Shown piece after piece: positions 16,681 to 20,792 of a stretch of 38,554 nt of DNA; position 1 is the first letter of the stretch, and each line of letters starts with the position of its first letter. Source of the DNA: Solirubrobacterales bacterium (GTDB taxonomy: Bacteria; Actinomycetota; Thermoleophilia; Solirubrobacterales; 70-9); contig JACDGU010000005.1 of the NCBI GenBank assembly GCA_013821475.1, forward strand, positions 1 through 38,554. The letters are read 5' to 3'. Under the pieces are notes generated by a model. It ran no database searches, was not told the origin of the DNA, and worked only from the letters and a program-made list of their open reading frames with translations. The position numbers were made by a program, and so were the translations under genes.

Positions 16681-17190
16681 ATGGAGGCCGCCAGCCCAGC
16701 ACGTCTCTACGCGACCGCCCTCGGCGCCCTGCTCGTCGTCCTCGGGATCGTCGGCTTCTTCTACGGCGCCTCATTCGGCAGCCCGGGCGACGTCGAAGCC
16801 GCGCTCGGCGTGCTCCGGGTCAACGCCTGGCTGAACCTGTTGCACGTCGCCACCGGTGCCCTCGGCCTGCTGCTCGCCGGCGTCGCCTCGCGACGCTACG
16901 CGCTCCTCGTCGGCGCCCTCTACACCGCCCTGGGGATCTGGGGCTTCGCGATCGGAGCCGCCGACGCGATCGGCGGCTTCCTCCCCGCCAGCGGTGGCGA
17001 CGACACCCTGCACCTCGTCATCGGCGTGCTCGGCCTGGCGGCGGCGGCCGGAACCCCGAAGCCGCCAGGGAGGCGGAACGCCAAGCGGCCCGAGAAAGGT
17101 CGTGGTTCCTCTTCCACGCCCAAGGTGCAAAAGGAACCGCTCAAGCAGAAGTCAGAGCCGCGAGCGCAACCCGCTGGTAAGCGAGCGTAG
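16681..17190 (+). CDS. DUF4383-type four-helix membrane protein with basic tail
   Basis: I use the ATG at 16681 rather than the ORF start at 16651, which overlaps the rhomboid start; about 169 residues. Four hydrophobic helices (ALGALLVVLGIVGFFYGASF; LNLLHVATGALGLLLAGVA; LLVGALYTALGIWGFAIG; TLHLVIGVLGLAAAAG) match DUF4383, common in Actinobacteria, function unknown. The last 40 residues are Lys/Arg/Pro-rich and cytoplasmic; the final 39 bases overlap the convergent gene at 17152, so the tail may have been acquired by read-through of an older stop. Confidence 0.85.
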   Translation: MEAASPARLYATALGALLVVLGIVGFFYGASFGSPGDVEAALGVLRVNAWLNLLHVATGALGLLLAGVASRRYALLVGALYTALGIWGFAIGAADAIGGFLPASGGDDTLHLVIGVLGLAAAAGTPKPPGRRNAKRPEKGRGSSSTPKVQKEPLKQKSEPRAQPAGKRA

Positions 17191-17505
17191 GCCGCTTTCG
17201 CCCCGCTGCTTGCTGCGCCGGCGCAGCTCGAGCAGGACCAGCGCTCCGGTGGCGACGCCGCCGGCACCGACCGCGACCACCGGGCGGACCCAGTTGCGGG
17301 GGTCGCGCAGCGCCCGCAGCTCGCTCTCTGAGAGTTCCTCGGCCCACTCGGAGAGCTCCTCGGCAGCGGCCTGGGTGACGGCCGCCAGGGTGTCCTCCAC
17401 CCGGCCGGAGAGCCGCTCGGGGGGCTCGATCGGGGCCAGCGCGTCGGCCAGCAGGCTCTCGACGTCCCAGCTCGAGCGGGTCAACCGCTCGCTTGCCTCA
17501 CTCAT
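17152..17505 (-). CDS. One-TM partner protein of the ECF sigma factor
   Basis: 117 residues starting inside the 3' end of the ECF sigma gene (8-base overlap, so translationally coupled). Acidic N-terminal region of about 70 residues (ALAPIEPPERLSGRVEDTLA; EELSEWAEELSESELRAL), one membrane helix (about 73-93, VRPVVAVGAGGVATGALVLL) and a basic tail. There is no HxxxCxxC zinc anti-sigma motif. The topology and coupling suggest a membrane-tethered regulator of the sigma factor, but this is inference; no family recognised. Confidence 0.75.
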   Translation of the reverse strand: MSEASERLTRSSWDVESLLADALAPIEPPERLSGRVEDTLAAVTQAAAEELSEWAEELSESELRALRDPRNWVRPVVAVGAGGVATGALVLLELRRRSKQRGESGLRSLTSGLRSRL

Positions 17506-18058
17506 CGCTCATCTCCTCCTGGAGTTGCTTGATCGCGCGATGGATAAGGACCTTGGTGGCGCCGTCGGAGCGGCCCAGGGCACGGGCGATCTCGCGGTTG
17601 TCCATGCCGAGCGCGAAGCGCATGATCAGCGCCTCGCGCCGGTCCTCGGAGAGGTGCTCGAGATTGGCCATCACCTGGCGCAGCTCCTCGCGCCCCTCGG
17701 CGATCGCCACGGTGTCGTGCCGGGCGGCGATCGGGTCGGCGTTTTCCAGCGGCGTCTGCGGCCGTCGTGAGCGGTCGCGATAGTAGTTCGAGGCGAGGTT
17801 GTGGGCGATCCGGATCAGCCACGGGCGCAGCGGCCGTCCGTCCGACTCGCGCCGCGCGCGGTCGAAGTGCCGGTAGGCCTGCAGGAAGGCCTGCTCGGTC
17901 AGGTCCTCGGCGTCGTGGTGGTTGCCCACCCGGTAGTAGGAGTAGGAGTAGACGTCGCGCAGGTGGGCGCGGTAGAAGTCTGAGAAAGCGCGGTCCAGCT
18001 CCGCCTTCGCCGCGGGACCCAGGTCGCCGGGCTCGACGTTCTCGCTGGGGCCGCTCAC
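17498..18058 (-). CDS. ECF-family RNA polymerase sigma factor
   Basis: 186 residues. Region 2: DFYRAHLRDVYSYSYYRVGN, DAEDLTEQAFLQAYRHFDRA, and RPWLIRIAHNLASNYYRDR. Region 4: LEHLSEDRREALIMRFALGM followed by a helix-turn-helix NREIARALGRSDGATKVLIH. Length and layout are typical of ECF sigma factors (sigma-70 regions 2 and 4 only). Coupled to the one-TM gene; the PlsC-GpsA gene lies 18 bases upstream on the same strand, so some transcription may come from there. Target promoters unknown. Confidence 0.94.
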   Translation of the reverse strand: MSGPSENVEPGDLGPAAKAELDRAFSDFYRAHLRDVYSYSYYRVGNHHDAEDLTEQAFLQAYRHFDRARRESDGRPLRPWLIRIAHNLASNYYRDRSRRPQTPLENADPIAARHDTVAIAEGREELRQVMANLEHLSEDRREALIMRFALGMDNREIARALGRSDGATKVLIHRAIKQLQEEMSDE

Positions 18059-18076: not shown

Positions 18077-19741
18077 TCACGCCGCCCACCTCGCCCTCTC
18101 GACCCGGCGCAAGCCGGCGACCCACTCGTCGGCGTCGATCTCGCCCCTGATCAGCTCGGCGAGCCCGGTCAGGGCATCAGCGGAGACGCCCGAGGCGGCA
18201 ACCGCTTCGGCCAGCAGCGGCGTCGTGACGAGCCCCTCCGAGGCCTGGCCGATCAGCTTCGGGATCTCCGCCGCCGGCGTGCCGGTGCCGAGCAGCTCAC
18301 CGGCGCGGCGGTTGCGCCCGGTCGGCGCCATCATCGTCGCCGTCAGGTCGCCGACCCCGGCCAGGCCGGAGAAGGTCTCGAGCTCGGCGCCGTGCTGGAT
18401 CGCGTACTCGATGCACTCGCTCCAGATCTCGGCGACGGCGATCCCGGCGGCGTTGAGTCCGTGCGGCTCGGCGGCGGCGGCGGCAAGGGCCGCAGCGTTC
18501 TTCGCCGCGCCGGCCATCTCGACCCCGGTGACGTCGCCGGAGCGCTCGCAGACGAGGCCGGCGAGGTCGAACACCTCGCCCAGCTGGGCGCGCAGGTCGG
18601 CGTCGGCGGAGCCGAGGACGAGCGCCGCCGAGCCGGAGACCGCCTCGCGGGCGTGGGCCGGCCCGCCGAGACAGGCGATCGCCCGCGCCCGCACCCGTTC
18701 GCCGACGTATTCGGCCGGCAGTTGACCCTGCGGGGCAATCAGGCCCTTGGTCAGGAGCAGGATCGAGGAGCGGCCACCGACCCGGTCGGCGATCGACCCC
18801 ACCGCCTGCGGCAGCGACCTGGACGGGATCGCGAGGCAGATCAGGTCGAGGCCGTCGAGCTCGATGTTGGAGGCGAGGCGGACGTCGATCGTCTCCGGCA
18901 GCGGCACCTCCGGCAAGTAGCGGCGGTTCTCGCCGTGGTCGATCAGCTCGGCCACCCGTTCGGGAGTGCGGGCGCCGAGCTGGACCTCGAGCCCGCCGCG
19001 GGCCAGCAGCACGGCGACGGCCGTCCCCCAGCTGCCGGCGCCGATCACCGCGGCGCGGCGCATCGCCGGCAGGCCACCGAGGTCTTCCCACTGCAGCTGG
19101 ACGTTGGGCCAGATCCGCGCCGTAACGGTCTCCGCCAGCGCCCGCGAGGGCTCCTCGGCGCGGGGAAAGGTCATCGCCCTGCCGAGCCGCACCTTGACCT
19201 TGCGCGGCCGGATCCGCCAGCCGCGGCGGACATGTTCGGTCCCGAGCACCGCCGCCGGAATCACCGGCGCACCGGTCTGCAGCGCCAGGCGGCCGACGCC
19301 GCGCCGGGGCGAGCCCAGGGTGCCGCGCCGGATCCGGGTCCCCTCGGGAAAGATCGCGACGGTGCCGCCGCGTTCGACCAGCATCCGCGCCGTCTCCATC
19401 GATTCCTCGTCGGACTCGCCGCGGCGGATCGGGAAGGCGCCGAGGCGGGAGAGGATCCAGCCTTGCCAGGGGCGGCGGAAGAGCTCGACCTTGGCGACGT
19501 AGTTCATCGGCCGCCGCCAGGGCAGCGAGCCGCCGAGAATGAAGGGATCGAGGAAGCTGCGGTGGTTGGAGGCGACGATCAGGCCGCCCTTGAGGCGGGC
19601 GTGCTCGCGACCGGTGCGGGCGTAGCGGAAGTAGAGGAGGAAGCCCGGCGTCAGGAAGACGCGGGCGAGCAGGTAAATCGGCCAGTTGACGCTGTGCTTG
19701 CGCGTGTAGGCATGGTATTTGGCGAGACGCTCGGCGTTCAC
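18077..19741 (-). CDS. Fused 1-acylglycerol-3-phosphate acyltransferase (PlsC) and glycerol-3-phosphate dehydrogenase (GpsA)
   Basis: A single 554-residue ORF with two complete enzymes. Residues 1-215: PlsC-type acyltransferase with the HX4D motif NHRSFLDP (His60, Asp65), IRRGESDEES and FPEGTRIRRG (131-140). Residues 227-554: GpsA with NAD(P)-binding GAGSWGTA (234-241), LLTKGL (Lys about 332), GAAKNAAALAAA (Lys about 414) and GVGDLTATM. Met227 aligns with where a separate gpsA would start, but no stop separates the halves. GpsA makes glycerol-3-phosphate from dihydroxyacetone phosphate; PlsC adds the second acyl chain, so the fusion joins entry and later steps of phospholipid synthesis. Internal initiation at Met227 is possible. 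Confidence 0.93.
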   Translation of the reverse strand: MNAERLAKYHAYTRKHSVNWPIYLLARVFLTPGFLLYFRYARTGREHARLKGGLIVASNHRSFLDPFILGGSLPWRRPMNYVAKVELFRRPWQGWILSRLGAFPIRRGESDEESMETARMLVERGGTVAIFPEGTRIRRGTLGSPRRGVGRLALQTGAPVIPAAVLGTEHVRRGWRIRPRKVKVRLGRAMTFPRAEEPSRALAETVTARIWPNVQLQWEDLGGLPAMRRAAVIGAGSWGTAVAVLLARGGLEVQLGARTPERVAELIDHGENRRYLPEVPLPETIDVRLASNIELDGLDLICLAIPSRSLPQAVGSIADRVGGRSSILLLTKGLIAPQGQLPAEYVGERVRARAIACLGGPAHAREAVSGSAALVLGSADADLRAQLGEVFDLAGLVCERSGDVTGVEMAGAAKNAAALAAAAAEPHGLNAAGIAVAEIWSECIEYAIQHGAELETFSGLAGVGDLTATMMAPTGRNRRAGELLGTGTPAAEIPKLIGQASEGLVTTPLLAEAVAASGVSADALTGLAELIRGEIDADEWVAGLRRVERARWAA

Positions 19742-19758
19742 GCAGAGCGCTACACGGC

Positions 19759-19782
19759 CGGGCGGGCACGGTTACCCGCCCG
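19759..19782 (-). terminator. Hairpin after the maleylacetate-reductase-like gene
   Basis: CGGGCGGG-CACGGTTA-CCCGCCCG, a perfect 8-bp GC stem with an 8-base loop, lies two bases past the stop of the minus-strand gene at 19785 and just upstream of the PlsC-GpsA start. No T-run, so it may act as a weak terminator or mRNA 3' stabiliser. Confidence 0.6.
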
Positions 19783-19784
19783 AC

Positions 19785-20792
19785 CTACCAGGAGCCTTCG
19801 ACCAACCCCGCAAGATCGGACTTGGTCAGGGGTGGCCCGGGGACCGAGGCGAGCTCGGGGCGTTCGAGCATCTGCTCCAGGGCCTGGCCGAGCTTGCTGC
19901 GGTCGGCGCCGAGAGCGCCGAGGCCCGGCGGGTCCTCGCCGAGCTCGAGGATGCGGGGTTCGAGGCCACTGGGGTCGGTGCCGAGCGCAGCTGCGAGCTG
20001 CGCGAAGATCTCGGGAGCGCGGCCGGCGAGGAAGGCCGCGGCGCGAGGCAGGACCGCGGCGTTGGTCCCCGCGTGCGGGGTCCCGCAGACCCGCACCAGC
20101 GTCTGGCAGACCGGGTGGTGGAGGCCGAACTTGGCGCTGTCGACCGCGTAGCCGCAGAGGATCGAGCCGAGCGCCAGCGCCGCCCGGTCGCGCTCGCCCG
20201 GCTCTTCGTCGAGGGCACCGGCGATCGACGCGGCCCCGCGCAGCGAGCACATCACCGAGACCGGGCTGGCCAGCGGCGTGTAGAGGCAGTCGGCGCCGTG
20301 GGCGAGGGCGTTCATCGAGCTGGCGCGGAGTTCGGCCTCGGGGGCGCTGGTCATCGCCTCCGGGTCGGCGATCACCAGCTCGGCCCGGGCGCGGCGACGG
20401 ACCCGGCCCTCGGCGCCGGCGGGAGCGCGGTGGTTGGCGCTCATCTCGGCCCCCGACAGCGTCGTCGGGATCGCGACGACGCGGGCGCCGCTGACCGAGG
20501 CGACCGACTTGGCGACATCGATCACGCGGCCGCCGCCGAGGGCGACGATCGTCGCCGCGTCGACCTGGTCGAGCAGCGGCGCGGCGAGATCGGCGACCGC
20601 GCCGGGCCCGACCTCGTGCACCGCGCTTACCGCGGCGGCCAACTCAGGTGCATCGCCGAGGGCGCGGGGCGTGCTCAGCAACGCGAACGGGTCGAAGTCG
20701 CGACCGAGCACCAGCTCGAGCGCCTGCCCGATCCCACCGCGACGGAAGACGACGGTCCGGCCGGCGTCCTCCCAGACGAAGTCCCCGTTCAC
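19785..20792 (-). CDS. Iron-containing alcohol dehydrogenase family, maleylacetate-reductase-like
   Basis: 335 residues. Family III (Fe-ADH) signatures: cofactor loop VALGGGRVIDVAKSVAS, IPTTLSGAEMSANH, metal-site region SSMNALAHGADCLYTPLAS and GLHHPVCQTLVRVCG. The SGAEM...SS(M)NALAH pattern and length are closest to maleylacetate reductases, which reduce maleylacetate to 3-oxoadipate in hydroquinone and hydroxyquinol degradation. The start overlaps the stop of the ring-cleaving dioxygenase gene by four bases, which supports that role. Confidence 0.85.
   Translation of the reverse strand: MNGDFVWEDAGRTVVFRRGGIGQALELVLGRDFDPFALLSTPRALGDAPELAAAVSAVHEVGPGAVADLAAPLLDQVDAATIVALGGGRVIDVAKSVASVSGARVVAIPTTLSGAEMSANHRAPAGAEGRVRRRARAELVIADPEAMTSAPEAELRASSMNALAHGADCLYTPLASPVSVMCSLRGAASIAGALDEEPGERDRAALALGSILCGYAVDSAKFGLHHPVCQTLVRVCGTPHAGTNAAVLPRAAAFLAGRAPEIFAQLAAALGTDPSGLEPRILELGEDPPGLGALGADRSKLGQALEQMLERPELASVPGPPLTKSDLAGLVEGSW

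What the first reader, a model, noticed from the sequence alone, without database searches (positions are those of the whole stretch)
18077..19741. Single-chain PlsC-GpsA fusion
Seen: complete acyltransferase motifs (NHRSFLDP, FPEGTR) followed in frame by complete GpsA motifs (GAGSWGTA, GAAKNAAALAAA). Known: the two enzymes act two steps apart in phosphatidic acid synthesis. Inference: the fusion may localise glycerol-3-phosphate production at the membrane.
Basis: partly seen in the sequence, partly recalled or inferred. Interest (0 to 1): 0.52.

Follow-up and report, generated by a model that had tools for sequence, protein, structure and literature searches.

The report
Fused PlsC-GpsA phospholipid enzyme
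A single protein joining the enzyme that makes glycerol-3-phosphate to a membrane acyltransferase is real and old, is found throughout one order of soil bacteria (Solirubrobacterales), and goes with the loss of the usual bacterial enzyme (PlsY) that starts phospholipid synthesis.

Summary
The fusion is real: one uninterrupted 554-aa ORF on the minus strand, 18077-19741. It has a PlsC-type acyltransferase (residues 43-165), a length-invariant linker (216-227) and a complete GpsA (231-541). AF2 gives one well-ordered protein (pLDDT 91, pTM 0.85). It is not an assembly artefact: about 97 of 399 sampled genomes of the class carry the same full-length gene at a conserved locus. All lie in the window's order; none was found in other orders, nor elsewhere in a 91-genome phylum sample. 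In the window's family it is the only GpsA (45 of 45 genomes with one). Both halves keep catalytic motifs and are under purifying selection. Elsewhere in the order a stand-alone gpsA exists and the fused GpsA half has decayed or vanished at least four times, leaving PlsC with a linker scar. New context: the same order lacks PlsY (31 of 33 genomes; other orders have it in 111 of 116), keeps PlsX (tested in the family), and carries an order-specific, PlsB-motif acyltransferase, usually beside glpK (25 of 30). So the pathway is rewired. The fused PlsC is most likely the second acyltransferase, with the glpK-linked enzyme as first. Membrane tethering of G3P production is plausible but untested. 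I found no published description.

The parts
18077..19741 (-). plsC-gpsA fusion gene, 554 aa, GTG start, stop at 18077-18079
19631..19735 (-). N-terminal helices (residues 3-37), predicted membrane-surface anchor of the PlsC half
   Evidence: DSSP on AF2 model; anchoring inferred from T. maritima PlsC
19247..19615 (-). PlsC-type acyltransferase domain (residues 43-165; NHRSFLDP, GAFPIRRG, FPEGTR)
   Evidence: PF01553 1.7e-28; motif alignment
19061..19096 (-). Linker LQWEDLGGLPAM (residues 216-227), 12 residues in nearly all loci, also kept as a scar in PlsC-only descendants
18605..19051 (-). GpsA NAD-binding domain (residues 231-379; GAGSWGTA, TKG Lys332)
   Evidence: PF01210 9.7e-26
18119..18535 (-). 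GpsA C-terminal catalytic domain (residues 403-541; AKN Lys414, GLAGVGDL Asp465, RN 476-477)
   Evidence: PF07479 2e-23
17498..18058 (-). ECF sigma factor gene, 18 bp downstream on the same strand; likely co-transcribed conserved neighbour
   Evidence: co-directional in 80 of 87 fusion loci
17152..17505 (-). Small protein with one hydrophobic segment, overlapping the sigma gene; conserved neighbour
   Evidence: no Pfam family; co-directional in 79 of 87 fusion loci

Best explanation
A bifunctional phosphatidic-acid-pathway enzyme. The C-terminal GpsA half reduces dihydroxyacetone phosphate to sn-glycerol-3-phosphate (G3P). The N-terminal half is a PlsC-type acyltransferase held at the membrane surface by two N-terminal helices, most likely adding the second acyl chain (1-acyl-G3P to phosphatidic acid). 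A short rigid linker keeps the GpsA half next to the membrane. Because PlsY is missing, the first acylation is most likely done by the order-specific, glpK-linked, PlsB-motif acyltransferase ('PlsC2'). SHOWN: single ORF, complete motifs in both halves, purifying selection, sole GpsA of the window's family, order-wide conservation, PlsY absence, PlsC2 presence. INFERRED: catalytic activity of each half, order of the acylations, membrane tethering, any channelling or local supply of G3P.
For: Both domains above Pfam cut-offs. NAD motif, both Lys, Asp, Arg-Asn kept in all full-length fused GpsAs compared, apart from the clearly decayed lineages; HX4D and EGTR kept in the fused PlsCs. dN/dS about 0.09-0.34 in PlsC and in both GpsA domains. 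AF2 pLDDT 91, pTM 0.85; best fold matches Coxiella GpsA 3k96 (TMt 0.92) and T. maritima PlsC 5kym. Single GpsA in 45 of 45 f1 genomes with a match. PlsY in 2 of 33 order genomes versus 111 of 116 others, 0 of 46 in the family; PlsX in 20 of 21. PlsC2 in 31 of 33 order genomes, 0 of 116 others, with EGGRSR as in E. coli PlsB, beside glpK in 25 of 30.
Against: No biochemistry. The fused (and the order's stand-alone) GpsA lineage scores well below NCBIfam cut-offs (195.7 vs 257) and about half the usual PF07479 score, so substrate or cofactor preference may differ. The GpsA half was lost or decayed repeatedly where a stand-alone gpsA exists, so physical linkage is not essential. PlsC2 was not found in the window's own assembly, which is only 89.6% complete.
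Confidence: 0.6

Rival explanations
1. The fused PlsC half is itself the G3P acyltransferase that replaced PlsY, so GpsA hands its product directly to its partner and the two activities are adjacent steps.
For: PlsY is missing in exactly the order that carries the fusion. A G3P-making enzyme is covalently attached. Motif II GAFPIRRG resembles PlsB GAFFIRR, and the fused-PlsC profile also finds PlsB weakly (5.8e-8).
Against: Motif III is the ordinary PlsC FPEGTR, not PlsB EGGRSR. The paralogue PlsC2 carries the PlsB-like blocks and sits beside glpK, so it is the better candidate. RR in motif II is common in the other actinobacterial PlsCs aligned.
Confidence: 0.22
2. The fusion is a frozen accident: both halves work as ordinary separate enzymes, and linkage gives only fixed stoichiometry and co-expression, with no local supply or channelling of G3P. 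(This concerns the benefit of fusion and can be true together with the activities of the best explanation.)
For: The parent genes already sit in one gene cluster (aroA-cmk-plsC-der-(plsY)-gpsA) in other orders. The GpsA half was lost or decayed at least four times once a separate gpsA was present.
Against: The linker length is constant and its sequence strongly conserved over the order, and the predicted domain arrangement is confident; no fission was found in the window's family.
Confidence: 0.3
3. The GpsA half no longer makes G3P in bulk and acts as a nucleotide or metabolite sensor regulating the acyltransferase.
For: Low family scores. In one genus the C-terminal catalytic domain is gone while a Rossmann-like remnant remains attached (L052, L060, L061).
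Against: In the window's family it is the only GpsA and keeps every catalytic motif under purifying selection. The remnant forms occur only in other lineages.
Confidence: 0.08
4. Assembly or frameshift artefact joining two genes.
For: None found.
Against: About 97 independent genomes share the uninterrupted ORF, including finished single-contig genomes.
Confidence: 0.01

Closest known systems
GpsA, NAD(P)-dependent glycerol-3-phosphate dehydrogenase (PF01210 + PF07479; Coxiella 3k96)
   Same: Fold, NAD motif, catalytic Lys/Lys/Asp/Arg-Asn; 30% identity to 3k96 over the GpsA half
   Different: Attached to a PlsC domain; diverged clade scoring below the NCBIfam cut-offs
PlsC, 1-acyl-sn-glycerol-3-phosphate acyltransferase (PF01553; T. 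maritima 5kym)
   Same: HX4D, FPEGTR, N-terminal helices
   Different: C-terminal helix continues through LQWE[WD]xGG into a GpsA domain
DsGPDH of Dunaliella salina (6iuy), a two-domain G3P dehydrogenase
   Same: GPDH fused to another enzyme that acts on the G3P pathway; found by sequence and by fold
   Different: Its partner is a phosphatase (HAD/SerB-type) domain (from my own knowledge), not an acyltransferase; eukaryotic, independent origin
aroA-cmk-plsC-der-(plsY)-gpsA gene cluster of other actinobacterial orders
   Same: Keeps plsC and gpsA together in one co-directional cluster
   Different: Separate proteins; der, and in some plsY, lie between them
Mycobacterial PlsB2/PlsM pathway (PMC10593935)
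   Same: Actinobacteria that lack PlsY and use HX4D-type acyltransferases for both acylations
   Different: Mycobacteria also lack PlsX; no fusion to GpsA mentioned there

Membership tests
GpsA (PF01210/PF07479) | Both Pfam domains above curated cut-off | tested here: met
   91.1 vs 23.1 and 83.6 vs 25 bits
GpsA (PF01210/PF07479) | NAD motif GxGxxG, catalytic Lys x2, Asp, Arg-Asn | tested here: met
   GAGSWGTA, K332, K414, D465, R476-N477
GpsA (PF01210/PF07479) | NCBIfam GpsA models above cut-off | tested here: not met
   best NF000942 195.7 vs 257 bits
GpsA (PF01210/PF07479) | DHAP reductase activity | not testable with these tools
   needs an enzyme assay
PlsC / LPAAT (PF01553) | PF01553 above cut-off with HX4D and EGTR blocks | tested here: met
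   99.5 vs 23 bits; blocks
PlsC / LPAAT (PF01553) | TIGR00530 AGP_acyltrn above cut-off | tested here: not met
   86.8 vs 102.95 bits
PlsC / LPAAT (PF01553) | Uses 1-acyl-G3P rather than G3P as acceptor | not testable with these tools
   needs an assay; motif III favours PlsC
PlsB (for the paralogue PlsC2, not the fusion) | TIGR03703 plsB above cut-off | tested here: not met
   22.7 vs 618.5 bits; only the catalytic blocks resemble PlsB
PlsB (for the paralogue PlsC2, not the fusion) | HxSxMD / EGGRSR[ST]G blocks | tested here: met
   HxSxMD in many and EGGRSR in most of the order's PlsC2; E. coli PlsB sequence
DsGPDH-type phosphatase-GPDH fusion | N-terminal phosphatase domain | tested here: not met
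   the N-terminal domain is PF01553

The most novel reading that the evidence does not exclude
Solirubrobacterales rebuilt the entry to phospholipid synthesis: PlsY was lost, a new PlsB-like enzyme tied to glycerol kinase took over the first acylation, and GpsA was welded to the acyltransferase. Each G3P-making enzyme is thus paired with its own acyltransferase, one by gene linkage and one by fusion, feeding G3P locally at the membrane, while PlsX is kept for another purpose.
Probability: 0.35. Interest if true: 0.68.

Novelty: new variant of a known kind. Interest (0 to 1): 0.5.

Why it matters
Both families are textbook enzymes, but the architecture appears undescribed and marks a whole order in which the standard PlsX/PlsY step is broken (PlsX kept, PlsY gone). 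That makes the first acyltransferase of these soil bacteria an open, testable question and offers two defined candidates. The repeated in-place decay of the fused GpsA half is a natural experiment on what a fused enzyme is good for.

Tried and rejected
Artefact or frameshift: rejected. Internal start at Met227: not conserved. Origin of the fused PlsC from the cmk-linked operonic PlsC: the tree is unresolved, so only a hypothesis. Looking for a second gpsA or plsC in this genome: none found, but the assembly is 89.6% complete, and sibling species have two more PF01553 genes, so plsC uniqueness is not claimed. The C60 weak PF01210 hit in G000 (22.9 bits, 85 positions) was not taken as a GpsA because no PF07479 copy accompanies it. 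Literature searches for the fusion or for PlsY in Thermoleophilia found nothing; only open-access papers are searched. Fusion outside the order: none in 91 phylum genomes.

Full report
OBSERVATION. The finding's coordinates hold one ORF of 554 codons on the minus strand. Pfam places an acyltransferase at 43-165, the GpsA NAD domain at 231-379 and the GpsA C domain at 403-541, all above curated cut-offs. All quoted motifs are present.

DISTRIBUTION. A search of 399 genomes of the class gave full-length matches in about 97 (my count of the listed rows), all in four families of the window's order. Record titles of near relatives name the order Solirubrobacterales. The other orders of the class and a 91-genome sample of the phylum show PlsC and GpsA only as separate matches. 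In the window's family f1, 45 genomes have a PF07479 match, each exactly one.

LOCUS. Downstream on the same strand lie an ECF sigma gene (18 bp gap) and a small gene with one hydrophobic segment, conserved in 80 and 79 of 87 fusion loci, then a rhomboid protease and a CNNM transporter. This synteny holds over the order, so copies are orthologous.

PROTEIN. The linker LQWE[WD][LI]GGxPPx is 12 residues in nearly all loci where both domains were found. Invariant columns include H60, D65, E133, R136, K332, K414, D465. dN/dS against six relatives is about 0.09-0.34 in PlsC and in both GpsA domains. AF2 with 39 orthologues gives pLDDT 91.3 and pTM 0.85; helix 200-220 leads into the first GpsA strand at 229. 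Foldseek finds GpsA 3k96 and PlsC 5kym.

EVOLUTION. GpsA tree: fused copies and stand-alone copies of the order are sister groups inside one strongly supported clade, far from the GpsA of other orders. Where the stand-alone copy exists, the fused GpsA half may be intact, diverged with catalytic residues gone (L039, L040, L053), cut to a Rossmann remnant (L052, L060, L061, L048, L071) or lost (L047, L051, L059). PlsC-only descendants keep LQWEWLGG, a scar of the former fusion. On the PlsC tree the non-intact states need six changes by parsimony; well-supported branches force at least four for the 'full' label. In other orders plsC and gpsA lie in a cluster aroA-cmk-plsC-der-(plsY)-gpsA, a plausible ancestor; the PlsC tree does not resolve this.

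PATHWAY CONTEXT. PlsY (PF02660) is present in 111 of 116 genomes of other orders and in 2 of 33 of this order (my count; both copies score lower than the typical ones), and in 0 of 46 of the family. PlsX is present in 20 of 21. A second PF01553 protein, here called PlsC2, is found at 47% identity or more in 31 of 33 genomes of the order and in none of 116 others (best 139 bits against 217 or more). Its blocks NHFSxMDH, GVFPVRR, EGGRSR[ST]G resemble E. coli PlsB (HRSHMDY, GAFFIRR, EGGRSRTG), and TIGR03703 plsB hits it at 3e-5, far under that model's cut-off. It lies beside glpK in 25 of 30 loci, in f1 and elsewhere. These correlations reflect few evolutionary events, so the counts are not independent tests.

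MECHANISM. The simplest reading: GpsA half makes G3P, PlsC2 adds the first chain, the fused PlsC adds the second; glycerol kinase beside PlsC2 gives a second G3P source. The rival that the fused PlsC acylates G3P directly remains open. Whether fusion gives local G3P supply is untested; repeated loss of the GpsA half argues that linkage is useful, not essential.

KNOWN OR NEW. Both families are known; I found no description of the fusion or of PlsY loss in this order in the open-access library. Mycobacteria also lack PlsY, but lack PlsX too (PMC10593935). Verdict: a real, order-wide new architecture of known enzymes in a rewired pathway.

Noticed in passing
L155:3638-4408(-), L145:3664-4407(-) and orthologues L197-L226: Order-specific PF01553 protein with PlsB-like catalytic blocks (EGGRSR), next to glycerol kinase in 25 of 30 loci; candidate replacement for PlsY.
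   Followed up: yes
Order-wide: PlsY absent in 31 of 33 genomes of the order while PlsX is kept in 20 of 21 genomes of the window's family; what uses acyl-phosphate is unclear.
   Followed up: partly
window 17152-18058 (-): ECF sigma factor plus small protein with one hydrophobic segment, 18 bp downstream of the fusion, conserved in about 80 of 87 loci; may link lipid synthesis to an envelope response.
   Followed up: partly
G139, G218, G194 (genus code g28): Genomes of the order (one a single 3.5-Mb contig) with neither the fusion nor any PF07479 GpsA, yet with PlsC2; their G3P source is unknown.
   Followed up: partly
L052, L060, L061, L048, L071: PlsC fused to a Rossmann-like remnant of GpsA lacking the catalytic domain, in several species.
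   Followed up: partly
window 19756-19785 (-): 13-bp GC-rich hairpin between the upstream Fe-ADH-like gene and the fusion start, no U tract (z -2.1).
   Followed up: no
window 19785-20792 (-): Short Fe-containing alcohol-dehydrogenase-like gene directly upstream, found beside the fusion only in part of the window's family (17 of 87 loci).
   Followed up: no
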